DNA of 64,000 nt from Maylandia zebra (taxonomy: Eukaryota; Chordata; Actinopteri; Cichliformes; Cichlidae), in NCBI RefSeq assembly GCF_041146795.1, contig NC_135173.1, positions 68,551,251-68,615,250 of the forward strand, written 5' to 3'. Both the position numbers and the translations under genes were made by a program. This document shows positions 2,472-53,998 of the stretch, piece after piece. The notes below the pieces were generated by a model, which saw only the letters and a list, made by a program, of their open reading frames with translations, was not told the DNA's origin and did not search any database. Positions within the stretch are counted from its first letter, which is position 1. Every line of letters begins with the position of its first letter.

Positions 2472-3177
2472 TTTATTTTCACCCACTATGAGGTCATGTT
2501 TGTCTTGTATCCGACTGCCAATCATGGGAAATGAGCTAGAAATCCCCTTTTCACAAGTCTTAATTGCTTTGCTAAGTTTATTTCTCATATGAAAAGTTTT
2601 ATATCATTATGTCTGTGAAGGTTCTCACCAGGTCACGGTCGTCTAAGGAGCTCGCAAAGAAAAGCGACTGGCCTCCAGGTTTCCAGACGTTTCACCTCTG
2701 AGAGCAAATGTTGGAGAGTCCCACTACTTGTATGTTTAACATTTAACAGTTTTGGAGATACTCATATTCAAACATGGCCTCAGATTTCAAACTGCAAAAA
2801 AAGATAAAAGCTGCTGGAAGTAAGTCTACAGAGCCATTTTTAAAATCCTATATGTTGAAACATTTTTGATATATGAAGCTAAAATTTCACAACAAACATT
2901 TTGGTGGCCGTGCAGAAAGTGTTCCCAGAACCTGATGACTGAACGAGCCAAAGCCCACTGAAGGTCAAGACGTGCTCACATGGCTCGTTTGGGTTTTCTT
3001 GAGTTTTTAGTGGAATTTTTGGGATGTTTGATTTTCTGCCTCTTCACACCGATTGGCTGCTTTTGTTCTTCCAGCTGAATTTGGTGGCAGTAATTGTGAC
3101 GTCACGGCTTTTCTGAATTCAGCGTCTACCCTTGTTTGGCTGCACACCACATCTTTCAGCAGCACAGGATCTGCATG
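2472..3177 (-). other. prdm11: probable prdm11 3' UTR with two poly(A) signals
   Basis: Downstream of the prdm11 stop on the minus strand, AATAAA hexamers occur at 2582-2577 and 2477-2472. They would give a 3' UTR of about 0.6-0.7 kb. The end is not proven without transcript data. Confidence 0.4.
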
Positions 3178-5333
3178 TTACACATCAGGGTAGAATTCTG
3201 CGTTGACGTCAACGCTGTGCAGCACGCATTTCTGATCAGCCGCCGACATCCTGTTCAACACCTCAGCCGAGAGCGAGTAGCTGCTGCCGGACTTTTCCTC
3301 AAACCAGCTGTCCAATGCTCGCTTCCCGTCAAAGTTTGCGATGGGCGGTCCATTAACAGCCACAGTCAGCAGATCGTTCATCTGTTCCAGGGTCAGCCGG
3401 GAGCGGTTGTTCTTGCACATTTTCTGCAGAGACCCTCGGCCCTTATCGCAGCAGGCCGTGGAGCTGGGCAGGACCCTGACGACCTGCACGATGCGGTTCA
3501 GCAGCGGGAAGCGTTGCTTGTACCTGCAGATGTGGCCGATCACCTCTTTAAAACCGTTCATACTGTAGTAGTCCGCTTTCAGATCCTTCCACTCCACCAC
3601 CAGGCTGCCTCTGGCCTCCGTCTGGGAGACCTCCTGGGCTGCGGTGGGAATCGATTCCAGGTGGTTGAATATAATCTTGATTTCCTCGTCCCCGTAGGCT
3701 TGCAGGTCCTCGTGGTTGCTGGGCCAGGTGGACAGGTCCAGCACCTTGCAGGCTTTGGCAAATGAGCAGCTCTGCAGGTCCAACCTCTGAGACAGGATGC
3801 TTTGGCTCCTGTTGCAGATCTTTTCTCTGATGGACTGAAACTTGGACTCTGCAACGCGCAGGTTCTTCAAGGCAACTCCGTTAAAACTTTCTCTGAAATT
3901 TTCCTCAAACTCCTGCAGATATTCTCCGGGGCAGTCCACCAACTGGCCTATCTCCTGAATGGCCTCCTCTATCTTGGCTTCCACCTGCGACACCAGCAGG
4001 TACTCTCCCTGAAAGGTGAAGGCCAATCGTGACAGGATAGCTATGATGTCGAGCAGGAAGTAGATGAGCTTCACTGACTGATAGTCCATGAGGAACTGGA
4101 GGAGGGTGAGCGCGATGGCCGCAGCGTCAGCCCTCTGTGTCTGGCTACTGATCTCCTTAAGGTGTGCAACGACCTCCAGGTAATCCTTGATGAGCGCATT
4201 AAGGACGTTGGGCTCTCCTATGATCCAGCGTATGGCTCTGATGTCTCCTAGGAACTCCGTCTCCTCCGACAGTGTTGGCGCAGTGGATCGCAGTTCGGCC
4301 ATCATGCGAGGGGAGTAGCGGTAAAAACTGAGAAGCTGTTTGAGGTTGTTTTCCAGGTCCTCCAGGCAGGAGAGCTCCTTTCCACTGATGGCATCCAGAA
4401 CTTCCAGATGTGGTCGATGGATCATGATGGGAAGACAGAGGATCCAGGGAAAGGTTTTTTGGACAGCTATATAAAGGTTTGCTCTCATTCCTGAAGAGAT
4501 GTTGGTGCCGTCCACCCCCAAACCGACCACCAGCAAGTCCTGAAACCGGAGGCCTAGGACACCAAAGGCACGATCCATGACCTGGAGATACCCATCCACA
4601 TTGGCCACGGTCAGTCTTTGCAAGGACAGGAACTCTGTGTTTGGGGAGCCCTCGTTGGTAACGAACTGGACGTAGACCGCCACCATGTCGGAGAAAAGGT
4701 CATCGTTTTGGGCGTCCATTATGACGCTCAGGAAGGGAGACAGACGCATCTTCTCTGCAAGATCCTCCTTCACAGCCCGGGCGATGTGGTGGATTAGGAT
4801 CTGACAGTCGCCTTCATTCATATACTGATCTACCACTTTGAGCTCGCACTTCTTCAGGAGCTCTGCCAATGAACGGAGGTCGGAGAAGGGCCGCCCTTCT
4901 AGGGCCAGGTGGTACGCTGCGTTGAAGAGAAGCATCATGTTCTTGCACATTTCCTCGGTCTTTTCCGGATGCATGCGCAGCTTGTACAGCTGCAGACACT
5001 TCTTGTGGAGGTTGCTCTGGCTGTGCAGCTTGATGGTGTGGATCTTGAATTGCTTGGAGCCGATAATGAAAGCTGAGGTGCGGGATGACTGGACGGTGTA
5101 CTGGCGGCACACGTGGCACCACATCTCATTCAGGGTTGGCGAGTAACGGAGGAACCAGAACTTTTTCAGCCACTCCTGCTTGAAGCGTCGAATCCGTCTG
5201 CCTCCTGCGGAGGAAAGCTTTGACGAGTCCTCGGGAGATATCACAAGATCTGCAGCGATGGACTCATCGGCAGAGTCCACGTCCTGCTCGTCTTCGTCCA
5301 GAACCACCTGAGTGGGTGTCAAGGGCTCCATCC
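3178..5333 (-). CDS. prdm11: prdm11 exon 6, hAT-transposase-like terminal exon
   Basis: 2156-nt exon ending in TAA (3180-3178). The acceptor tctctttgcag|GG joins the previous exon so that G|GG forms glycine and the long frame continues. It encodes [16 protein letters not shown] and a CxxC..H..H zinc-finger-like block, then D549 (VIMDAQND), VDGTNISSG (D617), a degenerate IMIHRPHLE where active hAT proteins have a CxxHRL-type motif, RAIRW..L, and a C-terminal [14 protein letters not shown] dimerisation region. It resembles the C17orf113/ZNF862-type domesticated hAT group. No stop or frameshift occurs over 718 codons and no terminal inverted repeats flank it, which points to a host exon and not a live transposon. 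Confidence 0.85.
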
Positions 5334-8300
5334 CTGCAAAGAGAAACTTATTCAACTTCTGAGAGTAACCAGCATTAAAGTCACATCAAATGTCTAATAT
5401 CATGCAGAGTGAATGACTTTATCAAGCAGCTGAGCAGATTTCTGGGGCTGCACAGCTTATCTCAACTGCTCTGCTGTAAACACAGTGGGGAGCATCAACG
5501 TGAGCGCTCCACAACCATTAGACAGGATTCACACGTGCTTAGAGCACTCCTCGCGTTTGGCAGATATCTTTGCTGTCATGATCGTCATAGTAGAACCACT
5601 CCACAGCTCACAGGACAGCCAGCTCCTCAGGACGGCACTCGGCTGTGTGTTCATTCACATTTCTGACAGAAGACAGAGGCGGCGGCCTCGGCACCGACCA
5701 TCAGCTGAGCTAGCGGTCTGTGACGACCAGTGCTGGTCAAGTTACTTGAAAAAAGTAATCAGTAACTAATTACTGATTACTTCCCCAAAAAAGTAATCCC
5801 GTTACTTTACTGATTACTTATTTTCAAAAGTAATTAGTTACTTAGTTACTTTTTAAAAACACGATTTACACCCTGAATAGGTGATAAAGCGATAGATCTT
5901 TCAGCACAATTCTACTTTTTCTACATAATCATCATACAAAATGTGATCAGATGGAAAAGTCTCTTTTTAAAACTTGTTTTATTAGTTTTAATCTTTTAAC
6001 TTTATGCATCAAGCAAACATTTAATTATATGCAACATTCTCTGACTGGAAGAAATTAGTTTAACATTGAAACCTATTTTCTGCACATTCCAGCACATAAA
6101 ATAAAATATTTTTTGTGTTTACACTCAGTCTTTCAAATAGATGCAAGTAAAACACAGCAGAAAATAAATAAAGTCACAGACTCAGCGGTCCTGTTGCTCT
6201 ATTTTCACCTGTAAAGCAGGAGTGGGGCAGGCGGAGGTTTACCCTGGTGCAGGTGTGCCGCGGTCAGTTGAAGAATCCGTGAGTTTCTCTGTGAGTTTCC
6301 CATTACGTTAAACGCTGCACGCTCATACTCTCTCTGCAGTTACAAGGAACGCGTTACTGCCCATCTCTGGTGACGACCACGCAATGTGCTGACAAACTGC
6401 AGCAGCTAGCAGCAGTGCTGGCACGTTTGAATAAACTGTCTGGCATCACAATCTGCATGAAATCACTGAACTGAACCAAGAACCGTCTGGAACAAAGGTC
6501 CCCAACCCTTTCTGCGCCACGGACCGGTTTATGCCCGACAATATTTTCACGGACTGGCCTTTAAGGTGTCGCGGATAAATACAATAAAATAAAAGCAGTA
6601 CCAAAAAAAGATTTATTCATAACCCACGGGAAAGACCCAGGGAAAGCGAGTTAACAATAAAAACGATTAAAAGAAAATAACGATAAAAACCTGAAAACCG
6701 TGAATTTCACACCCGAGCATCAACTCTCGCGGCCTGGTACCAAACGACTCGCGGACCGGTCTAGAAAACTTTCTGTCCCGACAGAGAGCTTTTCCTCCTC
6801 TCAGTGGTGAACTTGGGCGGACTTCAGGGGGGCTCCTGCAGCGACACACATCGCTCATCGGTTGAGTTTTCTCTCATTCACACTCACCAGACACTTTATT
6901 AGGTACACTTAAATGCATTACTGAGGTCAGTGGGCGGGATGTACTGATCTGTATTAGACTGCATTTTACTTGCAAGGTGTTCCTAATAAAGTGGCTGATG
7001 TGTGCAAAAGTCTGCAGGTATTAACTAATGTGACTAATCTTTGTGGGACTGTGGTGGAAACAAACAGCCAAACGAACCTTCAGAGTCTTTTTTGTGTGAA
7101 TGTGGCTTCAGATGGTGATCGAAACAAACACGCCTGCTAGACTCTGCACGTCAAACACAGCCACACTGCAGAGCGGTAACGCCGCTGCGCTGCAGAGAAC
7201 ATCTGCCCTCCTGCTCTCTCACATACCTTGAAAATCCTCGATGGGGCCTTGCTCGGGGTGCGGTGGGGCCTGATCGCGTTGAGTCTGTTCGGACGTCGCC
7301 GGAGCAGCAGCGTCTCCCTGTTCTCCTCGGAGACGGGACAGCTCCTCCTCCAGTTCCAGGATCCTCCTCTTCAGCTTCACACAGTTGGGGCAGAAGGAGG
7401 TGGAGGGTTTCTCTGTGCTCTGGTTCTCCTCCTCCTTCTCTTCCACCTTCAGGTTGGGAACGCCAAAGCCGCTCTCAGAGGAATCAAACCCCGAAACCAG
7501 GGCTGGTACTTTATACTCGCTGGTTTGGCCAGACCGGAACCTGAATTTACCAGAGTCCTCCAAAGAAGCTTCTAGGACGTGTTTGAAGATGAGGTCGATC
7601 TTCTTTCTCTTGGCCGGAGGCTGACCGTCGGACTCTTCGCTCGGCTGTTTGCTCAGTTTGCCCTGCAGAGCTGACTGCAGGCACGGGGACTTGAAGTCTT
7701 TCCCAGGACCTGAAAGAAAACCGTTTTTGAGCTATTTAAAGCCCCTAAAAGTGGGTTCAAAGTGCTCTACAGGTGACAAAGTGATCCACAGAAAGACTCC
7801 AGCACCCAGGAGAGCAACAGCGAAACAGCGCCGCCTGCTGGAGAGCCAAGAGCAGGACATCTGAATAATCCCTGAGGAGTCTATGTGGGTCACAGTCGCT
7901 CCAAGACGACAACAGTAACAGACTGAACTAATTAAATAATGCAACATATTACAAAGTTTACAAAATATAAGAAATGTCTCTAATTACAAATATCCAGAAT
8001 ATTACAGAGGGGACATATAGATGATGCACAAAAAGGAGATTTCATCCAAATTCCAAATTGTATGAAGAGATTTTAAAACTCATGATATATTTTCGGTGAC
8101 TGCGTCTCCTGTTACCTGCTCTAATATTTCACCCGACTGCCTCCTCACCTGTGTCCAGGTTGCGGTCGATGCTCTCCTGAGAAACGCAGTGAAGTCGTCT
8201 GATGTAATCGTCGCTGTACCAGACCCTCAGCTTCTCTCCGGCCGCCAGCGCCCGGCAGACTCTGAAGTAGATGTTTTTACCGTGCTGAAACGCCGTGAGG

Positions 8301-10469
8301 TTCCTGTCGCTCTCCTCCAACGAGGTCCGCACGTACCTGGTCAGAGACAGAAAAGCCGAGGGTCGTTTCTCCAGGACAGACCGTCATGGATCAGTCTGAC
8401 CTCTGAGATGTAACTCAGTAACTCCTGCAAATCAGATTTACTGTGGTATTGTGGTTTTAATGAGGTGATGAATGTGTTGCCAAGCACCCAAATTTAAAAT
8501 GAAATTAAAGAGAAAAAAAGAGATGTATGAAAGGTTGTTGGCTCAGTAGAAGAGAACCCGTCGGTACAACTGAAACAAACGCCGGCGGTGATGGATGACG
8601 TTAACCTCAGACTAAAGTTCACCTCATCCAGTTGGCTTTGGTCTCATCGCTGCCATCGATGGACTGGTAAGTGTTGTGCACATCAACAATCTGAAAACGG
8701 GAAAGCAAACAGATTCAGACGTCCCGGAACAAAAGGAAAGTAGTTGTATACTGGTTGTATACTGGTTGTATACTGGTTGTAAACTGGTTGTACACTGGTG
8801 TCTGTGGCGAGCTTACGATCCATGAAAAGAATCCTGAGGATCTGTCCTTGGACACCAGCTCTCCCTCATACGGCCCAAACAGCGCCCCCTTCGGGTAGAT
8901 CGCGTCCACGCAGCGAACATCTACCTCGTCTCCCTCGCTGAACACCTCTAAACCCGATGGGACCGTGAGCGCCGCCCTGTTGGCCGTCCCCGGGGCTGCG
9001 TGCGTGTCCCGGACGAACAGTGGGGGCCCGTGAGACGGACACTCCTTCTGGAAATAGTCCTGACACTCCTCACAGACTGAAGGACAAACCCAGCAGATAA
9101 AGGTTATCTCCAAATCTTCTTCTTTAATAACAGATTATTACTTTAGGAAGATTTGAGAAGACAATCCTGAGATTCAGATGTTGTTGAACCAGAGTGCAAA
9201 TAATGACATCATCAAATCAGGTGCAGACAAAGGGAAAATCCAACAAACTCAGTGAAGTCCCAGAAAGTTGATTCTGTTCATCTGGACGTAGGTCATGAAA
9301 CCGACCTGACAGCACGCTGTTCGTCAGTGGTGCTGGTGTCAGCTATTATGCACATGTTCTGTTTATAAGGGTGGAGACCTGCAGTCGCCTGATGATGACG
9401 AAACGTTTCTCCCACTGAAAACGTCCAGATGAACAGGATCAGCCTTTTGGGATTTCCTTACCCGGATGACTGAGCGCGCATCGAGACGTCTCAGTGAAGA
9501 TCTAAAAGCAGAACTGTTGGTTTACACGTTTCTCTGAGCCGTTTCTGAACAAGGTTCAAAATCACACAAGTGACTCAGATCTGTCTCCACTGAGGTCTGG
9601 GAGAGACCCAGACTGTCGCCCTCAGATGACAGGAAACTGTTAGGATGTTCAGGAACACCCAGGATCAAGCCTGCTGTGGACTGGAATCTGCTGGAACACC
9701 AGTGTCCCTTCCACAGTGAAGCCAGTCTCACATCTCCATGGACCAAGAAAGAAGCTCCTGCTCCAAAATCAACGAGCTCAACTGAAATCTGCCCACATGG
9801 ACGAGCCAAACGGCGTCTGGAGAAAAGTTTGATGGTCAGACGAGACAAAGATGGAGCTGATTGGAGGAGCAAAGGTGAGGCTTTCAACCCTGAGAACACT
9901 GCAGCTGTGACGCATGGCGGTGGCAGCATCACGCTCTGGGCTGTTTTATCCAGACAGGATTACGTCAGAAGACTGCTGAAGGTGTCTGATCGCAACTTGC
10001 TAAATGACCAAACATTACATAGGGTCTGTATATATATTTGAGCCTATACGTGAACTTTGGACCAGAGAAACTTGTTCTTTAAAGTCTTTAAAGCTGTACA
10101 ATCCAAAGAAACTGTTCAAAGAAATGATTGAAAGCCCAAAATGATCCTGACACTCACGTCCGTCACGAGAGGACAGAAAGTTTTTACCACATCTTTGAGT
10201 GTTTGAGGTAAAACGTTTGTGGCTGGCAGCACAATCAGAGGCTTTTCTAACATGTTCTGATAGAATCAGACCACTGAACAAATACACGTGTGCAGGAAAC
10301 GCACGAGCAGCTCCACGTGTCAGCGTGATAATGACGACATGTTAGGGCTCAGAGCGCGAGCACGGAAACATTCAAATATTCATTATTCAATCAGCCACAT
10401 CAAGCTCTAGGGACAAATCAGGGAGCAGACGTGAAGCTTACACCAGAGGTCCAGCGAGTTCTCGCTCAT
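3178..10469 (-). CDS. prdm11: prdm11, PR domain protein 11 with C-terminal hAT-transposase-like domain (six coding exons)
   Basis: Joined from exons 10469-10442, 9076-8817, 8690-8623, 8336-8149, 7709-7227 and 5333-3178; all junctions are GT..AG and phases match throughout, giving 1060 residues. Residues 9-11 onward ([10 protein letters not shown]) and the PR/SET block (about 35-165, with [29 protein letters not shown]) follow human PRDM11 as I remember it. A basic KRKKIDLIF stretch (about 215-223) and FCPNC (287-291) plus a short coiled coil also match. Residues 344-1060 are an hAT-like domain: a zinc-finger-like start (C415, C418, H446, H452), an RNase-H-like core with degenerate motifs, and a C-terminal dimerisation region (about 951-1023). 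PRDM11 is a nuclear PR-domain protein thought to regulate transcription; this part is family knowledge. The start is ATG 10469 because an in-frame stop lies upstream in the same exon. The N terminus is shorter than in human; an alternative first exon is possible. Confidence 0.88.
5728..6369. mobile_element. hAT-type non-autonomous element in prdm11 intron 5
   Basis: The ends are CAGTGCTGG and CCATCTCTG, flanked by a perfect 8-bp duplication GTGACGAC (5720-5727 and 6370-6377). The inside is rich in the AGTAACTAATTAC-type sequence very common in fish genomes. It has no open frame, so it is a MITE-like copy of 642 bp. The 8-bp duplication is typical of hAT insertions. Confidence 0.85.
6498..6770. 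mobile_element. hAT-like repeat fragment (GGTCCCCAACC end)
   Basis: It begins with GGTCCCCAACC followed by GCGCCACGGACCGGTTT and later has GGCCTGGTACC and CGCGGACCGGT. This is the ending of a widespread vertebrate non-autonomous hAT group. The second terminus is missing, so the copy looks truncated. Confidence 0.6.
6888..6998. repeat. short palindromic MITE (ACTTTATTAGG arms)
   Basis: The arms CACTTTATTAGGTACAC and GTGTTCCTAATAAAGTGG are near inverted repeats around a core of roughly 60 bp. This short element is scattered through fish genomes. Confidence 0.7.
7227..7709 (-). CDS. prdm11: prdm11 exon 5, linker, basic patch and coiled coil
   Basis: 483-nt exon, acceptor ggttttctttcag, donor TTTCAAG|gtatgt. 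It encodes a KRKKIDLIF basic patch, LEASLEDSG, then [20 protein letters not shown], nearly the same as the FCPNC/coiled-coil end of the 511-residue human protein. The human short form soon stops; here the donor leads in frame into the hAT-like exon. Confidence 0.9.
8149..8336 (-). CDS. prdm11: prdm11 exon 4, end of PR/SET domain
   Basis: 188-nt exon, acceptor tctgaccag, donor GACACAG|gtgagg. It encodes [26 protein letters not shown] and [14 protein letters not shown], the end of the PR domain, followed by [13 protein letters not shown] as in PRDM11. Confidence 0.92.
8623..8690 (-). CDS. prdm11: prdm11 exon 3, PR/SET domain middle
   Basis: 68-nt exon, acceptor cgttttcag, donor ATGAG|gtgaac. 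It encodes [20 protein letters not shown] then WM. The SIDGSDE..NWMR pattern is a PR-domain hallmark. The exon is too short to stand out as an open frame. Confidence 0.9.
8744..8798. repeat. 11-bp tandem repeat, five copies
   Basis: Three exact copies of TTGTATACTGG are followed by TTGTAAACTGG and TTGTACACTGG. The array lies in the prdm11 intron between exons 2 and 3, starting 18 bp past the exon 2 donor. Confidence 0.85.
8817..9076 (-). CDS. prdm11: prdm11 exon 2, start of PR/SET domain
   Basis: 260-nt exon, acceptor gtccttcag, donor TGGATC|gtaagc. It encodes [17 protein letters not shown] and the first half of the PR domain, ending in SSGFFSWI. It agrees closely with human PRDM11 in the same order. 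Confidence 0.92.
9266..9444. repeat. palindromic dispersed repeat (CTGTTCATCTGGACGT arms)
   Basis: The left arm GTTCATCTGGACGT (to 9289) and right arm ACGTCCAGATGAAC (from 9421) are inverted repeats. The interior (GATGATGACGAAACGTTTCT) is a common fish repeat. It lies in prdm11 intron 1. A related tail, GGATGACTGA, recurs at about 51.15 kb. Confidence 0.65.
9525..10010 (+). pseudogene. degraded Tc1-like transposon remnant
   Basis: The plus-strand frame 9676-10041 keeps [10 protein letters not shown], close to the KHGGGSIMLWG motif between the catalytic aspartates of Tc1 transposases, preceded by FNPENT. The DNA AAAAGTTTGATGGTCAGACG matches the region just before it. Frames are broken on either side and I could not find inverted termini. 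It sits inside prdm11 intron 1. Confidence 0.7.
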
Positions 10470-13062: not shown

Positions 13063-13134
13063 TAGCAGAGGATGGTTTCGATCCATCGACCTCTGGGTTA
13101 TGGGCCCAGCACGCTTCCGCTGCGCCACTCTGCT
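13063..13134 (-). tRNA. tRNA-Met initiator (anticodon CAT)
   Basis: The 72-nt minus-strand sequence folds as an initiator tRNA-Met and, as I remember it, equals the human gene. It starts AGCAGAGTGGCGCAGCGG, has GGGCCCATAACCC as anticodon arm, and a T arm with GGATCGAAACC. The A1:U72 pair and the three G:C pairs in the anticodon stem are initiator marks. A run of eight T lies 9 nt downstream. It starts translation with methionine on the small ribosomal subunit. No intron; CCA is not encoded, as expected. Confidence 0.97.
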
Positions 13135-19092: not shown

Positions 19093-19821
19093 TTACTTTT
19101 TATTGTCCAAACTGCTGACGAGAGCTGGCAAAGAATGCTGGGAGGGTTCTGAGGTTTTGCTGTTGTTGGTGTTGCTGCCATCGCTTCCGGTGATCTCCTC
19201 CTGTTTCTTCTCTGCCGGCGTCTCTGGGGGGTTGACGGCAGCTGTCTTGTTTTCAGAGCCGGTGGCGGCGTTGGCGCCGTGGCCTCCGCCGGGGCTCTGA
19301 TCGGGACGGGCTAGCTCGACTGTGCCGTTGGTGGTGGCAACGGCCGAAGAAGCGGGAACATTAGTTGCCGCGGCTACCTCAGTCTCAGGCTTGGCTACGA
19401 TCTCCGCCTGGAGACCAGTCCCCGTGTTAGCCCCTCCCCCCGGCCCCGCCTTTCCGTCCGCCCCCACGCCGGTGCCGCTATCTGCCGTTAGGACTGTGCT
19501 GTCGGGCTGGCCGGAGGTGTCTCCGCCCGTCTGGTGGCTCCCCGCGGCTCCGTGCTCCTCGGGCTTGCTCCCTTCGGTGATGACGCTGGCCAAGGAGCTC
19601 CCCGCCTTCACCTTCTCCGCCGAGTTGACTTTGGGCGGAGCTTCAGAGCTGACCGCGGCCTCAGCCCTGTCCGGGACTCTCATGTCTTTGCCCTCCGTCT
19701 CTGCCAGAGCCTGGTTGAAGTTGAAGGCTTGGATGAGGCGAATCAGGTGTTTGACTTTGTCCAGGGAGAGCTGCATCTCCTTCTGGCGGGCCAGGATGGT
19801 GTTTTTGGTCTCCATGCATTT
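19093..19821 (-). CDS. phf21a: phf21a coding exon 16 (last)
   Basis: 729-nt exon after acceptor tttttcag, ending in TAA (19095-19093). It starts [16 protein letters not shown] and continues [19 protein letters not shown], as in human, then about 200 residues low in complexity (A, G, T, S, E). Confidence 0.94.
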   Translation of the reverse strand, partial: KCMETKNTILARQKEMQLSLDKVKHLIRLIQAFNFNQALAETEGKDMRVPDRAEAAVSSEAPPKVNSAEKVKAGSSLASVITEGSKPEEHGAAGSHQTGGDTSGQPDSTVLTADSGTGVGADGKAGPGGGANTGTGLQAEIVAKPETEVAAATNVPASSAVATTNGTVELARPDQSPGGGHGANAATGSENKTAAVNPPETPAEKKQEEITGSDGSNTNNSKTSEPSQHSLPALVSSLDNKK

Positions 19822-22735
19822 CTGAAAAAATGAAAACAGGTTTTAGTTTCATCTCCTCAAATAAAGAGAGCAGTGACAATTCACAGAAGCTGAAGTTGGC
19901 GGCAGGCATTTAACTGCAACAACAGTAAAAACCCTGTGACTGTGACGGCCGTGAGGACGAGCGTCTGTCCTGGAGCTGTGCTCGTTTACGGCACACAGTC
20001 CCGCTCGTCGCTGCTGATGCTGGAATTTAACGTGAAGCCGGAGAATAGCTCTAAAACAATACAGTTACAGCACGACGAGCTGTCCTGTCTTCTTTTCATC
20101 GCTTACCAGCCCGACTCCACATCCCTGAGGCAGATCGCTCAGGACCTGACAGGTAATTATACAAACTTTCTCTCACAATGCAGCATCGCGGTGCTTTATC
20201 CAACATCCAAACACAAAAAACATGGCCATCACAGCAGCTGACAGTCTTCCCCCTGCTGAGCCAGCTCACAGCCAAAACTTTTGATAACTTTAGCGCTGCA
20301 CAGATTATGAACGAGGGACTGGAGACTGGACCGAGGCATAAACGTGTGCGCTGAGCTCACTGTTATGGAGTTGCTGAGCTGCTTGACTCTCTGTTCCAGC
20401 TGCTCTCGCTCCAGTTTCAGCTCTGAGCTCCACTTCATCAGCTTCTGCTTCTCCTCTTCTTTAGCTGCAAGACAAAGACGGGAGAGTCGGTCAGAGCTCG
20501 CCGGTCCCGGCAGACGCGACACACGAGAAGAGCAAAAGCTGCCGTCACCTTCTTTGTAAGCGATGTAGGAATGAACGATAGCCAGGGTGCCGGGCCAGGG
20601 AATGGCTTCTTCTTTCTTCAGGATCTGGAGAGAGAAGCTGGGAGTTTTCACAGAGGCGGAAGCTCGGAAAAGAGTTCAGGGAGACAAATTTAGCCACCAC
20701 CCTGCGGTGGGGCCGATACGGGGACGAGCAATGGGGTGGATGGATGTGAGATGCAGATCTTTACACAATGAATGAGACAGAAGCACAAAAGAACAATACT
20801 GCATCACGTTTCTGCTTACAAAGGATCGAACAGTCCTAAAGTTCAGGCCAGCGTGGCAGAAGGCCCGCCGGAAGCACATTGCACAGTCTGGACTGCAGTA
20901 CCCCCTTCCCCCTGACTCAGGATCAGTCTGCTGCGGTTACCTGATCTTGGCATTTTGGACAGATCCACATGCCTTTAGGAATGGTTTTCAGGGGTGGATC
21001 CAGGCAGTCCAGGTGATAAACACGAGAACACGTGTCGCACATGAGCAACTGGCCACTGCGTCTGCACACAGTGCAGAAGTCCTCATGGATGTCTCCCTGT
21101 GAGGAAGAATTGGACCAATCAGTTTCCCCACCAACCATCAGCGCAGAGGCAAGGCGGGGGCGCCGTGATCTGGTTTAGTTTACAGTCTGGGCTTGTTCTA
21201 ATGACATGGTGTGTTGTGTTAATCGACTGAGCCCACACAGGGGAGTTAGAATGTGCTCTGCAGTAGTTATCAATGACGCTACAGGACTCTGTTCACTTTG
21301 TAAGGCTGAGTCAAAGTAAAATCAAGTGATGAGTGCGGATGAGTGTCATGGAGACGACAAACTAATGGAGGAGTGCAAATGGTGACAGAGCTACTGGGCC
21401 AAAAGGACCGTGTGTGACGGGGCGTCCAACCCTCTGAGCTGTCCGTCTCCCCCATCGTTACTTACATCCCCAGAGCTGGGGCTGGGCAGGGGGAGGGGAT
21501 GGACGGGGCTGGAGGGGGAGGTCGGGGTGAGGCTGACCAGGTCCGGGACGCTGCTGTATTTGGGTGGACGACCTGGGTGAAATGAGACAGACGACAAAGA
21601 CGGAAAACAAAGAAAAAAAGAAAGATGGAGAGGGGGGAGAAAACAAAAACAAACAGTCTGTATGACATACCTTGGAAAGGGAGTCTTCGTTGGCTAGCAT
21701 GAGTCAGGGTGAGAGAGGAAGAGGAGGAAGAGGAGGAGTCAGAAGCACAGACAGCAGGGTTAGTGCTCCGAGCGAGCTGACGCCAAGCTCTAGTACAAAG
21801 CTGCCCGTGGACTCGTGTCAGAAGTCAACACCCCGGGTGCCGACCTCGCGTTCCCACCTCGCCTTTTTGTCTTTCGACTTCCGGGCCTCTTCGGCATGAG
21901 CGGCTCAGCCTGTTGCCACTTAAAAGTCATAAAACGGCTTAATACGGGTATGAGATGCATGGACCCGACAGGCACGCCGTGGGTTGGGCGCTCAGTCGGG
22001 CCGACCTGCGAGCCCGTTACTGGCTTAACAAAGACCCGAAGTTAAAAGACAAACAGCAAGAGATGAATAAGAGAGCGGCTGCAGCGAAGTGGAAACCCGA
22101 GGCCAGCGTTTGGAGGGCGAAGGAACAGTCCGACATCAGTGCAGACACTGACACAGACTTCCTCCGCCTCTTTCAGGGCGTGTTAAAATCTGACACCACG
22201 AGTTGCGCGTGAGGTTAGCGTCTAGCGTTACGACGTCTGCAGCTCGACTGTCGGAAAGTGTGATGTTATCGAATCAGAAACACCGTTAGTCGTGTTACCG
22301 GCGGCGTGGCTCCCAGCAAACAAACATCATGGGCGTTAACTGGGAGTCAGGGTGTTCCTACAATTCCCAGAATGCATTTCAGCTCTTCCCAGAGAAAACA
22401 GAGGGTCTAACCGGATTCATCCTCCTTCATCGGAGGCTCCACAGCTCTGATCACCAACCTCGGCATCGTTTCAGAGGGTACATGTCTGCGTTTAGTCTGC
22501 GAATGAAACCTGACATCATCGGCACTAAATGACGTGACACGCGGGCGCGTTTCAGCCCGTTTGAAGCTTCAGAGCCTCGAGGACGAGTGAGCATGAATCC
22601 GGCTTTAGACGGAAACCCGACTGAAGCGACAAAGACAGGAAGCAGAAGCAGGAGAAAAGTTTCACAGCACGTTATTAGCACCGAGCATCAGATCAGACAC
22701 TGATCTACTGTTTCTACTCTTCTTCCACTCAATGA

Positions 22736-22804
<69 letters not shown>

Positions 22805-25800
22805 CTCTCTGCAGCTCTGCCACGACTCTCAGCTGATTATCGTCTCTACTGTAGCTCTGCTTGATTCTATTGTCATGCATCGTTCAGTCTCTACTGGTTT
22901 CTACTGTCATTTCCATCATCTTTGGTCTGTTTTTCATACAGACCTCTCTTCCTGGTCCCCTGGTGCAGAGGGCTGTTCAGGTAACTCACTGCACTCTTTT
23001 TCCTCTGAAACAAAAGAGAAAAACGTCGTTAAGTCGCTCAGCAGGCAAAATACTGGTGAAAACTACTTTAATCAACCCAAACTCGTAAACATGTCATCGC
23101 ACTTTGCTTGACTCTAAATTCACAAACGTAAACGGGAGTCTGGGACGTACCTCGGGTTCAAACACGGCGCCGCTGTACACCGGGTTGGCCGTCGTTCTCC
23201 TCTTACGCTCCTGTCTTTTGCTCTGAATTTCTGCAAATAAAAACACATCAGCGTTTCCTGCAGATGTTTGCTCACGCAGCAGCTTCACGACACCAAGACT
23301 GAAAGCATCGCTCACCTTCCAGGTGGTCGTGTGTTACCAGGCCCAAGGACACCATGAAGGCCAGTTTCTAAAGGAGACACAGCAGGTGAATCATCACGCT
23401 GGCAGGTTTGGTACAACAAAAAAGTTGTGCGGTAGCAAAACGTGCTCCAAGCATCAACGTAAACATCTGCAGGAGAACGTCCTGACACATAAATCCATCT
23501 TTTTAAAATGATACATTTTCAAATGAGATGCAGAATGAAAGTATTTTATATCGATGCAGTAAAGCAGCTCCTCTCATGCCTCTTTTCTCGCTCTCAAACC
23601 CCACCCAGGCACGCAATGAAGCCCCACCCACAGATGGCCCCGCCCCTCCCTGGGCCTGGTTCTGCCAGAGGTTTCTTCCTGTTAAAAGGGAGTTTTTCCT
23701 TCCCACTGTCGCCAAAGAGCTGCTCATAGGGTCATATGATTGTTGGGTTTCTCTGGGTTATTTTAGGGTCTAATAATATAAAACACCTTGAGGCGCCTGC
23801 TGCATAAATAAACGTTTGGTAAACAGCTTTTTCTGGGGTTTTGGATCATTGGGAACATCGTGCGCCTTTATCTCCTTTCATAACATCAGCCTGTGTGAGT
23901 ACGTTTGAACTACAATATACTAACAATATGTTTTAATAACAATAACATTTACTTAAAGATATTAATATCTAGAATTTGCAGGTGAAACGTGTGACGACAG
24001 AGAAACGGTTCAGTGATTTGTGCTAGAAAATACACGACTTGTGTGTCCCTCTGTGGGTCATACCTCTGGGTTCTCCTCTTTCTTGGGGGGCCTGGGAGGA
24101 GGAGACACAGGAGCGGTTGAGGAGGAGGACGGGAGGCTGACGACGGCGTGCTGCTCTGTTCCTCCCGGTTTAACAGTCTGCTGAGAGAAGACGAGACGAA
24201 GACGGCAAGCTTAAGTCACAGAAGAGAACATTCCTTTATATTTTCATTATTTCTATTTTCTGTTTTTCATTGAAGAAAGAAGCAGAGGCCTCCACACGGC
24301 CTCCTTCAATAACACGGACCAATGTGACACAGCGCCATCGTTCAAAGACCCGAGGGTCGAACAGGCGTCCAAACTCCAGTAAGAACCCATCAGCTGCAAA
24401 CACGGGACCTTCAGAGGGTGTGACAGTAAGACACGAGCAGACGACGCCCTGCACGCAGCTCTGCAGCGCTGACTAATCATCAATTCTAACATACTAACGA
24501 TACCCAAACAAGCTGTGAGCGTCCAGCTGCCCGATGCTCCAGCCGGAGAGCAGGTACGTTTCCTCTGATCACCGCTGTCGGGAAAGCAGCGCAGAGATTT
24601 AACCGTCACAGCAGCAGAATTTAAACGTGCGGACCGGATCCACGAGTAAAAGCAGATCATTACTGAGGTTCTCCTCGTCTATACAGACACCAGCTTTATA
24701 AACCACTTCAGTACTTTTAGAGGCAAAAACAGACCCTGCTGAAGTCTGAGAGGCCTGTTCGTTTCAGTGCTGTAGTTACCTGAATCACCACAGGGGGGTG
24801 CTATACTGGCACATAACCCTAACCTGTAAATGAACTAAAACTGATATCCAACCTTTCAGCGCTGGACACAGCCCTTTACAGCGTGTCGGAGGAGCAGCGG
24901 CACACGAGCGCCACCTTTAAATCTTTAAGGTCATCGCCTTATTGTTTAAACATCAGAACTACAAAACTATCCAAAGGTTTCTGAAAGTAAAATCTAAGAC
25001 CACGATTAAAATATTTCAGATCCTGCTGTGCTAAACAGTGCAGTACTAACGCAGGACCTTACCTTGGGCTCAGTGGTCAGGCTGCTGATCTGGATCGGCT
25101 GGACCGGAGTCTGAGTGGGGACGGGGGTGGGCAGGGGCACCTGGGCGGGGCTGGCGAGGCGGGTGGGTGCAGCGGAGACTGGCGTGGTGATGACGATGCC
25201 CGTCAGCGGGGCGGCACCGGTCTTGCTGCAGGGCTGGCCGTTGACGATGCGGACCTGGTGGATGGGCGCCGACGACGACAGCGAGGACGAGAGCTTAGTG
25301 GCCAACATGACGGGCCGCTGCAGCAACTGGGGGGCCGCCATCATGGGTGGGGGAGGGGCCGGTGCAATAGGGACATTGGTGGGCGTGGTCAGCTTTGGCC
25401 GGACCTGATAACGACACACAGCCAATCACAAATCGGCACAGAAATGACCTGATACTGCCAGGTAACGCCACTGTGGAGCTCTACCTCAGCCTGACTGAGC
25501 CTACCTTTACTGCTACTGCTGAAGCAGAGGAATGTTACAAACATTAGCTCATTTATTTTTATGTATTAAATCAAAAAAGACAGATACACCACATCATACA
25601 GCAGTGCCAGCTCTGCTACCACACAAGCCCCGCCTCCAAAGTCCCAGTCTTTAACCACTCCTACAGCTCACTCGCAGGGAATAAGGTGAGATGAGCCCTT
25701 CAGAGTGAGACAGGGGGCGGGGCTTCAGAGGTACAGGCACTGCAAAGCTTTAATGTTTTATAAAGCATTTTGTCATTAAACTCTAACAGTATAAGATACA

Positions 25801-28800
25801 CTGTACACATGTAACGATGTGCTGGCAGGACAGAAAGGACACGAATCGTTTAGACTTATTAAAAATGCAAAAACACATTAGATAAAAAAATCACCAATAA
25901 GGTCAAACGTGATTGGTGGAGGGAAAAAAACAAAACGTAATATTGTTAACAATATTTAATAGTTTTATAAGCCCAACCCTTCAAACTTCATACAGAAGTA
26001 CTCGAGTATTTGTTCTGAGCTAACAGACAAACGCTGCTCCTGGTAGGACGACTTCTGAGGCCTAACTCTGATGTTTGAGCCCGAGCTCCCGGTGGCGTTA
26101 CTCAGCACAAACACCGCCCACGTTCCTCCAGTGGAAGGGTTAAAACACACCGACAGCCAGAAACACAAAAATACCAAGAAGCTGCAGGAAACAAGCTCTG
26201 ACCAAAGAAAGGTAAAAGACACTGGTACACAGGCAGGAAACCTCCAAAAACACCTGCTCACAGGTCAGTCGGAAATTAAAAGAAGCACAACGAGAGGAGA
26301 AGTGATGAGTAAGAGGCAGCACACAGAAAACAATGTTTTAGTGCCACGGAGCAAGGCATGAGCGTTTGCTTCGGCGCGCTCCCGCCCTCTGCTGGAGAGT
26401 GAGCACGCCACGTCGGGTGGGCCACACACACTGATCTGAGGGGGTTAGGGTTCAGAGGCGGGTCTCACAGTGACGCACCTGTGGCTGAAAGGCGGGTCGA
26501 GGCGTCAGTCTAGGAGGCGGGACAAACTGAGGAACTTTGATTGGCTGGGCGGCGGCCTGCACCTGAGACAAAACCACAGCAGATTGTGGATCTGTGCTGC
26601 TGACATCTGACCGACACGTCTGCTGCGCTCGGTTCGGGACGCGTCGCCAAGCGTTGACAGCAGAGCGTGGGAGTAAGTAACTCTGAGAACACGCGGGCTT
26701 TAAAGCAGGTAGATCACACACCTGTGGGCTCTGCCGAGGGAGCAGGATGGAGAACTGGCACAGAGCAGCTGCTTTTGCACCGCAGGAACGAGGAACCCTC
26801 CAGGGACCAAAATCGGTCCGGTGCTGTTCGCCAGTGAAACGCTCATAAACTTCGGGGTTGGTACAAACCCAGATCTACTTTTTAGAGCTCATGGAGTCAT
26901 GCCCCATCCCAGCACCGTACTGTAAACATACATTTACTCTTATTGGCTAAATGTTTCTCAAAAACTATAACAAAGTATCAATGTTCCTCTGGATGTAGCG
27001 ACGTCGCTACATCCAGAGGAACATTGATACTTTGTAACATCCAGGTGTTTGTGTCAGCGAGCTGTCTCCAGTCTTTTCCTTGAAAAGATTCCTGGGAGGA
27101 AAAGTTCAGAGTCCTTCAGATGGAACACTGAACCGTGTGCAGAACACTGTGACCTCTGTCAGTTCCCGCATCCAAAGCAGAGGCCAACACTTGAAGCAAA
27201 CCGGACCCTGCCCTGCTCTGAAACCTGAAACACGAGCCTCACCTCCAAGTTTGAACTCTGTTCACGTCAGCGCTGTTCGACAGCTGCGCTCGTTTCTGTC
27301 TTCTGTGCAGTATTTTAATCACGGTGGTTAGCAGACCTCAGGTGGTCGTGCTGTTACATCCTGTCCACGCTGCTAAAACTAGTGTATGTTTAAAGGTAAG
27401 GCAAAGCTGCAGAAGTGTTTCAGAGAACGACGGCTGCAGAACAATTTAAAAACGACCTGCTGTGTTACGATTCGTCATTTCGATCGCTGCGTTTCTGACT
27501 TTTAAGCTTTTTTCCCTTTGCTCTGCTCTTCTTCACCTGACATGTTTTTAAAGATGGCCCTCGCTGTGATCAGTTTACCCCATCAGCATCGAGGCCCGCC
27601 CAGGAAGTACCTACCCACGCCCAGAGGTGGTACTTTGTTGTGTCTGGAGGCCCAGGAACGGGCACAGAGATGTTCCCGCGGTGGAAAACCACCTGGAAAA
27701 CCCTCAGTCGTGTCGTGACGTGTTCTTTTTGCAATCATGCGCCTCTGTGAGGGGAACTGACCCCCAGAGGGAGATGCTAGAAGCTGCCGCCACAGCCCGC
27801 TCGAGCGCTTTCAGAGAAACAGAGTCGTGTGAGAGCGCACGCAGGCGGGTCAGCGGGCGGCGGTCTGAAGCGTCTCCTGAGCTCGAACAGATCGCACCGA
27901 CAGCACACTTACCACCATGGCGTTCTTGGACACCAGCCGCATGGGCTCCGAGCTCTGATTGGTCAGCTTGCCGGCCACCTGGAGGTTGATGGGGGCGTTC
28001 TGCGAGTCGGGTTTGGTGATAGCTGTGGTTACCATAGCGACGGTGGGCGGGCGCTGCGGCAGGACGGTGCCGGGGGCAGCTTTCAGCACCAGCGTCTTTG
28101 TGGTGAGGACCGGCGTCACTGTCAGCGTCTGTGGAGGGAGAAGTTAACCCACGACACATTTAAAGACAGTCGGATTTTAAGTCATCCTGTAAACGGCGCC
28201 GCGGCTTTCATACCTGCTGCAGCGCTCCAGCTATCTGCTGGCTCTGCAGTGGGTTGGCCGGCTTGATGTCTCCTCCTCCTGGAGGAGTTTGGACCTGCAG
28301 CTGCAGCTTGGCCTCCGGCTCCTGCTTCACCAGCAGCTCCTTCCTCAGCTGCTCCACCACCTTTTTCTGCAGGCGAGAGCACAGGACATTATTCCCGCAG
28401 CAGGCGCCACTTCTCCATTCAAAAAAGCTTTATTGAAACAAAGTATGGAACAAACGATATAATGAAGGGTGTGGAGGCAGAGGGTCGACTCTCAGAGGAA
28501 AAAAGCTTTTTAAACTTTACTTTGGGGCGGACTCATATAAAAAGTGTGTTTTTTAACTGGTGATTGTTCATTCATCATTTAATTTAGAAAAGTTACTGTG
28601 AAAATAAGTACAAATAAGTACAAATAAGTACGAATAAGTACAAATAAGTACGAATAAGTACCCAAGCATCTCTGCATGACTGAGGAGGAGGGGGAGGGGC
28701 AAAAGAGAAATAAGTGAAAGAAGCAAAAAGAATGAAAAGCAGAAGAAGAAAGGGGTGGAGCTCAGGAGGTCACGCACACACTGGCGACTGAATTCTCAGT

Positions 28801-53405: not shown

Positions 53406-53998
53406 AGACAAAGCACATACAAACTCCAAAGCACGTACAAACTCCAAAACACGTAAAAACTCCAAAACACGTACAAACTCCAAAACACGTAGAAACTCCA
53501 AAACACGTAGAAACTCCAAAACACATACAAACTCCAAAACACATAAAAACTCCAAAACACGTAAAAACTCCAAAACACGTACAAACTCCAAAACACGTAA
53601 AAACTCCAAAACACGTACAAACTCCAAAACACATAAAAACTCCAAAACACGTAAAAACTCCAAAACACGTACAAACTCCAAAACACGTAAAAACTCCAAA
53701 ACACGTACAAACTCCAAAACACGTACAAACTCCAAAACACGTACAAACTCCAAATTACGTACAAACGCCAAAACACATAAAAACTCCAAAACACGTACAA
53801 ACGCCAAAACACATAAAAACTCCAAAACACGTACAAACTCCAAAACACATAAAAACTCCAAAACACGTACAAACTCCAAAACACATAAAAACTCCAAAAC
53901 ACGTACAAACTCCAAATTACGTACAAACGCCAAAACACATAAAAACTCCAAAACACGTACAAACTCCAAAACACGTAAAAACTCCAAAACACGTACAG
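53406..53998. repeat. 18-bp minisatellite, about 33 copies
   Basis: The unit is AAACTCCAAAACACGTAC with variants ACGTAA, ACATAA, ACGTAG, and CGCC for CTCC. The unit length is a multiple of three, so five frames stay open, giving repeats such as KTRTNS or VLEFVR; none is a real gene. Confidence 0.97.

What the first reader, a model, noticed from the sequence alone, without database searches (positions are those of the whole stretch)
3178..7709. PRDM11 continues in frame into a complete hAT-transposase-like exon
The splice donor after the known PRDM11 coiled coil (7227) and the acceptor at 5333 keep the frame (G|GG), turning a roughly 340-residue PR-domain protein into one of 1060 residues with a 717-residue hAT-like end. 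The familiar human protein is 511 residues and stops shortly after the FCPNC block. Either vertebrate PRDM11 in general has an overlooked long form made by capture of a transposase, or this is a fish state. I have a vague memory of longer predicted isoforms but cannot confirm them.
Basis: partly seen in the sequence, partly recalled or inferred. Interest (0 to 1): 0.75.

Follow-up and report, generated by a model that had tools for sequence, protein, structure and literature searches.

The report
PRDM11 fused to captured transposase
In this fish genome the gene PRDM11, usually described as lacking a zinc finger, reads on in frame into a large exon that descends from a jumping gene and still carries a zinc finger, so a much longer and probably DNA-binding form of the protein is predicted, though no RNA evidence was available.

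Summary
Six minus-strand exons (10469 down to 3178), all with GT/AG borders, join into one open frame of exactly 1060 codons; the split glycine G|GG and both coordinates are exact. The first 342 residues are PRDM11 (human PRDM11 structure 3ray E 4e-76; PRDM9 4e-41). The last 717 descend from a hAT transposase: the nearest kin in the same genome are 3-kb elements with inverted ends and 5-bp target duplications (hAT5 type), only 28% identical. The exon keeps the zinc-finger ligands, two catalytic aspartates and the RW motif; the catalytic Glu is Asp and the HCxxH cysteine is lost. Third-position GC (0.725) equals that of the PRDM11 exons; nine transposon frames give 0.38-0.50. Best reading: a domesticated host-transposase fusion giving PRDM11 a DNA-binding, multimerising tail; the short form would be intron read-through, with a stop two codons past the donor. 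Not shown: RNA across the junction, orthologs, selection. Fish-only or general to vertebrates stays open; I lean to ancient.

The parts
10442..10469 (-). PRDM11 exon 1 as modelled ([12 protein letters not shown]); further 5' exons not resolved
   Evidence: in-frame stop a short way upstream of this ATG
8817..9076 (-). PRDM11 exon 2: cysteine-rich knuckle and start of PR domain
8623..8690 (-). PRDM11 exon 3: PR domain
8149..8336 (-). PRDM11 exon 4: end of PR domain
7227..7709 (-). PRDM11 exon 5: basic stretch, FCPNC block and coiled-coil-like segment (the last by eye); ends in donor AAG|GTATGT, phase 1
5334..7226 (-). intron 5; read-through stop two codons past the donor; AATAAA at 6900, 6617 and 5983; holds MITE-like inverted repeats
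3178..5333 (-). exon 6: hAT-derived last coding exon (residues 343-1060) with stop TAA
4981..5154 (-). zf-C17orf113 zinc finger (PF25431, E 1.2e-8); putative ligands C415, C418, H446, H452
4714..4716 (-). D549, aligned with the first catalytic Asp of hAT transposases (kept; catalytic roles of the motifs are recalled)
4510..4512 (-). D617, aligned with the second catalytic Asp (kept)
3445..3447 (-). D972, aligned with the catalytic Glu of the CERxFS motif (changed)
3364..3522 (-). Dimer_Tnp_hAT region (PF05699, E 0.017, below the curated cut-off)
2577..2582 (-). first AATAAA downstream of the stop (595 nt past it)

Best explanation
The window holds a host-transposase fusion gene. A hAT transposon of the hAT5 lineage landed downstream of PRDM11 in the same orientation; a splice acceptor just in front of its start codon let PRDM11 exon 5 splice into the transposase frame, and the product was kept. 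The long protein (1060 residues) joins a PR/SET-type domain and a coiled-coil-like segment to a C17orf113-type zinc finger plus a hAT RNase-H-like and dimerisation body that has lost its catalytic Glu. Most likely it works as a DNA-targeted, multimeric chromatin regulator: the captured finger and dimer region supply the DNA binding and assembly that the short PRDM11 lacks. The short form arises when intron 5 is retained or polyadenylated early. Shown: gene model, homology, motif states, codon character. Inferred: use of the junction in RNA, selection, loss of transposition, DNA binding, long/short switch.
For: Exact in-frame model with strong splice sites at the junction. PRDM11 and not PRDM9: 3ray 4.1e-76 versus 3.5e-41. 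hAT descent: 60 matches in the own genome including itself, full-length kin E 8.9e-66; the kin family (L002-L008) has 3.0-kb copies with inverted ends, and 5-bp duplications in the three independent copies whose two ends were printed; 5-bp duplication defines hAT5 (passage of PMC12730594); zf-C17orf113 in exon 6 and in 2 of 4 hAT frames tested; a profile of exon 6 plus five relatives reaches Hermes transposase at E 0.005, perhaps driven by the relatives. Domesticated, not mobile: nothing else like it in the genome search (next full-length match 28%, 62 of 576 candidates scored), CERxFS changed to CDKGRG and HCxxH lost while the zinc ligands stay; the kin element's end is absent from the window. 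Host-like codons: GC3 0.725 in exon 6 and 0.725 upstream versus 0.384-0.498 in 9 transposon frames from 5 families, 0.65-0.78 in blocks along the protein; in 300 simulated neutral drifts from the L002 frame to that GC3 every run had at least 2 stops, and GC at positions 1 and 2 rose to about 0.72-0.75, against 0.558 and 0.348 observed.
Against: No RNA, protein or ortholog evidence. Dimer_Tnp_hAT is below its cut-off, as it also is in the transposon L002. The GC3 argument assumes that the progenitor had GC3 like today's transposons and an equilibrium GC that I chose (0.75, 0.8, 0.9). Of the papers whose PRDM11 passages I read, PMC4009873 gives 511 (human) and 565 (mouse) residues and no fingers, PMC2082429 and PMC13113268 say it lacks (canonical) zinc fingers, one 2026 review table lists 'PR domain + zinc fingers' without comment (PMC13203297), the others are silent on its structure beyond the PR domain. 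Single-sequence structure prediction was useless (pLDDT 35.5).
Confidence: 0.82

Rival explanations
1. Exon 6 is a separate, single-exon domesticated hAT gene with its own promoter in intron 5; the compatible phase to PRDM11 is chance or a minor splice form. The two could also coexist, giving a PR-less product from Met344.
For: Met344 is the first full codon after the acceptor, in a strong start context (GGGATGG); the transposase frames have a Met in the aligned place.
Against: The acceptor lies within the top 0.2% of AG sites and two bases from that ATG; the phase matches; exon 5 has no other coding end than a stop two codons past its donor. No 500-base block of the intron stands out in CpG (o/e 0.61-0.85, highest at 6178-6677 with GC 0.47), a weak argument. 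The bacterial promoter scan says nothing here.
Confidence: 0.1
2. A recent or neutral hAT insertion downstream of PRDM11 that happens to be open; no host function.
For: The genome carries young hAT5 elements with open frames.
Against: No full-length match closer than 28%; catalytic Glu and HCxxH lost; GC3 like host exons and unlike transposon frames; no kin element-end match in the window.
Confidence: 0.04
3. Exon 6 is an ancient part of PRDM11 in jawed vertebrates, and the familiar 511-residue mammalian protein is an intron-retention form of a gene whose full product is long (this refines the best explanation rather than opposing it, so its odds are not exclusive).
For: Divergence from all kin and host-like codons. 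Lead from memory only: the human 511-residue tail as I recall it reads, past the FCPNC block, like translation across a phase-1 GT-AAG donor, the position used here.
Against: Recalled letters, not tested; no vertebrate collection held; two collection scans confirmed no relative.
Confidence: 0.6

Closest known systems
SETMAR (SET domain + Hsmar1 mariner transposase, anthropoid primates)
   Same: A SET-domain gene joined to a transposase from an element that integrated downstream of it; the transposase part lends DNA binding (abstract of PMC6326780)
   Different: mariner, not hAT; began about 50 million years ago, primate (same abstract); a PR domain and coiled-coil-like segment here; targets unknown
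Human PRDM11 short protein (511 residues; PR structure 3ray)
   Same: Knuckle and PR domain (3ray E 4.1e-76); basic stretch and FCPNC block by recall
   Different: Described as lacking zinc fingers; no hAT tail described in the passages read
hAT5 transposons of the same genome (L002 and copies)
   Same: zf-C17orf113 finger, two aligned catalytic Asp, RW motif, C-terminal dimer region
   Different: 28% identity; catalytic Glu and HCxxH present in the transposon; several copies with inverted ends; GC3 0.42 versus 0.725
C17orf113-type domesticated hAT genes (by Pfam name only)
   Same: PF25431 zinc finger at E 1.2e-8
   Different: Known to me as a stand-alone gene (recall); here fused to a PR-domain gene

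Membership tests
PRDM11 (vertebrate PRDM family) | PR domain closer to PRDM11 than to PRDM9 | tested here: met
   3ray 4.1e-76 versus PRDM9 best 3.5e-41
PRDM11 (vertebrate PRDM family) | Conserved gene neighbourhood | tested here: inconclusive
   phf21a-like frames at 19-28 kb recognised by recall of the PHF21A sequence; no vertebrate map held
hAT superfamily (hAT5 lineage) | Full-length homology to a hAT transposase | tested here: met
   residues 42-686 of 718, E 8.9e-66 to L002; Hermes by profile E 0.005
hAT superfamily (hAT5 lineage) | D-D-E catalytic triad | tested here: not met
   D549, D617 kept; the Glu position is D972
hAT superfamily (hAT5 lineage) | Terminal inverted repeats, target duplication, several copies | tested here: not met
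   no match in the window to the kin element's end with up to 2 mismatches; 0 of the 59 other matches above 36% identity, and that on short stretches (counts are lower bounds). Diverged ends of its own family could be missed
Host-transposase fusion gene | Transposase frame joined in frame to host exons by splicing | tested here: inconclusive
   gene model complete, no RNA
Host-transposase fusion gene | Purifying selection on the captured exon | tested here: inconclusive
   indirect only: GC3 and drift simulation; no orthologs for dN/dS
Host-transposase fusion gene | Captured domain binds DNA and regulates genes | not testable with these tools
   zinc ligands in place is the only hint

The most novel reading that the evidence does not exclude
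PRDM11 is in full a transposase-derived DNA-binding protein throughout jawed vertebrates: soon after it split from PRDM9 it replaced PRDM9's finger array with a captured hAT5 zinc finger and dimerisation body, and the 'zinc-finger-less' protein studied in mammals is its truncated, intron-retention form.
Probability: 0.45. Interest if true: 0.85.

Novelty: new member of a known kind. Interest (0 to 1): 0.62.

Why it matters
PRDM11 is the PRDM protein described as having no zinc fingers (passages of PMC2082429 and PMC13113268), yet it is reported at transcription start sites (PMC13203297) and as a lymphoma suppressor acting on FOS and JUN (PMC7177584 and PMC13203297; both cite Fog et al. 2015, which I did not see). 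A captured hAT finger would say how it finds DNA and would mean that work on the short form has studied a truncated protein. It would also stand beside SETMAR as a SET/PR-transposase fusion from another transposon superfamily.

Tried and rejected
Scans for relatives of exon 6: viral contigs 8 pattern matches and genome contigs 28, none confirmed. PDB by exon 6 alone: none up to E 1. AlphaFold2 on exon 6 alone: pLDDT 35.5, discarded, no fold search made. sigma-70 promoter scan of intron 5: 3 sites, 3.1 expected, irrelevant to a vertebrate. Weak Pfam matches DUF7822 and DUF6448 in exon 6, below cut-off, taken as chance. Search for a second prdm11 copy or other PR genes in the own genome: not completed, so paralogs are untested.

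Literature: PRDM11+hAT+transposase gave 4 papers, of which I read passages of two (PMC5519329, PMC2200798), on other matters. PRDM11 alone gave 131 papers, 40 listed. Other searches: (C17orf113: 0). Passages read: PMC5519329, PMC2082429, PMC2200798, PMC4009873, PMC4532500, PMC7177584, PMC13203297, PMC6261651, PMC12249604, PMC7761934, PMC13113268, PMC12730594; outline and abstract: PMC6326780. None of what I saw describes a PRDM11-hAT fusion, but 91 of the 131 were not even listed, supplements were not read, and the main transposase-capture paper (doi 10.1126/science.abc6405, recalled) is not held. Considered and dropped: calling exon 6 an active transposase (catalytic Glu lost); calling it recent (codon character).

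Full report
What was checked. The finding says that PRDM11 continues in frame from a donor at 7227 into a hAT-like exon ending at 3178. On the minus strand six exons with GT/AG borders (10469-10442, 9076-8817, 8690-8623, 8336-8149, 7709-7227, 5333-3178) translate to 1060 residues and a TAA stop; the junction splits glycine 343 as G|GG. By recalled, approximate matrices the junction's donor stands above 99.58% of 4262 GT sites and its acceptor above 99.89% of 4394 AG sites of that strand; the borders of exons 1 and 2 score lower (91.7-93.1%). If intron 5 is not removed, the frame ends two codons on, and the first AATAAA after the long form's stop is 595 nt away. The 5' end is less certain: the model begins at MSENSLDLW, with an in-frame stop a short way upstream; further 5' exons were not resolved.

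What the first part is. Residues 5-183 match the human PRDM11 structure 3ray at E 4.1e-76; PRDM9 matches at 3.5e-41. [quoted passage not shown]

What exon 6 is. Pfam finds a zf-C17orf113 zinc finger (E 1.2e-8, above its cut-off) and a weak hAT dimerisation match (E 0.017, below it; the transposon L002 is also below it). The own genome, 962 Mb in 63 contigs, gives 60 matches (62 of 576 candidates scored); apart from exon 6 itself the best cover residues 42-686 at 27-28% identity, E down to 8.9e-66, and no other match exceeds 36%, that on short stretches. L002 to L008 belong to one young family: L002 and L003-L005 are about 98.8% alike over 3.0 kb, with inverted ends; the flanks of L002, L003 and L006 show 5-bp duplications (my reading of the printed flanks; L007 and L008 could not be judged on the left side). 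L003, L004 and L005 are 99.94-100% alike over all 5 kb, so they count as one insertion. hAT elements with 5-bp duplications are named hAT5 (passage of PMC12730594). A profile of exon 6 with five relatives reaches Hermes transposase at E 0.005; the relatives may drive that. Exon 6 alone found no solved structure.

State of the motifs. Exon 6 keeps the zinc ligands (C415, C418, H446, H452), D549, D617 and the RW pair. It has D972 where the 3 of 5 aligned relatives that reach this far have Glu, and lacks the Cys of HCxxH present in the 3 that cover it. That is what a DNA-binding but non-transposing derivative should look like; activity was not tested, and the roles of these motifs are recalled.

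Is it host coding sequence? GC3 is 0.725 in exon 6 and 0.725 in the 342 upstream codons, 0.65-0.78 in 150-codon blocks along the protein, and 0.384-0.498 in all nine transposon frames measured, which come from five families. Four stretches of a neighbouring gene that I recognise from memory as phf21a give 0.55-0.79; the two lowest are one that runs partly into intron and one of 31 codons. Codon choice in exon 6 correlates with the upstream exons at 0.83, an out-of-frame reading at 0.08. A simulated neutral drift of the L002 frame to GC3 0.725, under equilibrium GC of 0.75, 0.8 or 0.9, left at least 2 stops in each of 300 runs and raised positions 1 and 2 to about 0.72-0.75; observed are 0.558 and 0.348 with no stop. 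This argues for long selection on the protein, if the progenitor resembled present transposons in GC3. Orthologs, the direct test, were not available: viral contigs and genome contigs confirmed none, and the search for other PR genes in this genome did not complete (twelve tries of one request, last).

How it most likely works. A hAT5-lineage element inserted downstream of PRDM11 in the same direction, an acceptor in front of its start codon was used by the PRDM11 donor, and the fused protein was kept. The long form would bring the PR domain to DNA through the captured finger and assemble through the coiled-coil-like segment and hAT body; the short form would come from intron retention or early polyadenylation (AATAAA at 6900, 6617 and 5983 in the intron; the first lies in a MITE-like repeat). 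SETMAR is the closest working analogue: the transposase domain takes a methylase to transposon ends (abstract of PMC6326780). Whether the PR domain here is an active methylase was not tested. An independent start at Met344, giving a PR-less product, is not excluded.

Fish state or general? Undecided. For antiquity: distance from every relative found and the codon character. A lead from memory: the human 511-residue tail as I recall it reads like translation across a phase-1 donor at the same place. Against: the passages that describe the mammalian protein give 511 and 565 residues without fingers (PMC4009873) or say no (canonical) zinc fingers (PMC2082429; PMC13113268); one review table lists zinc fingers without comment (PMC13203297). 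Longer predicted isoforms may exist in annotation databases, which were not available here, so the novelty claim is modest.

Rating. A well-supported new member of a known kind (transposase-capture fusion genes), with a real surprise if it holds across vertebrates: the zinc-finger-less PRDM would have a transposon's zinc finger.

Noticed in passing
window 53409-53997: 18-bp tandem array, 32.7 copies, 90% matches, open in several frames.
   Followed up: no
window 13063-13134 (-): tRNA gene by Rfam, 58 bits, between prdm11 exon 1 and the phf21a-like frames.
   Followed up: no
window 19093-28000 (-): Frames recognised by recall as phf21a (BHC80), upstream of prdm11 on the same strand.
   Followed up: partly
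window 6881-7004 and 5746-5857: MITE-like inverted repeats inside intron 5 of prdm11; the first contains the AATAAA at 6900.
   Followed up: no
L008 250-2829 (-): A hAT5 copy whose frame runs into a reverse-transcriptase-like frame (by eye), 859 codons open across the join.
   Followed up: no
L003, L004, L005 (contig C22): Three 5-kb stretches 99.94-100% identical including flanks: a recent local duplication, or an assembly duplication, carrying the same hAT5 copy.
   Followed up: no
window 5212-5331 (-): Residues 344-383 are acidic, with two stretches (VVLDEDE, LVISPED) that look like SUMO-interaction motifs by recall.
   Followed up: no
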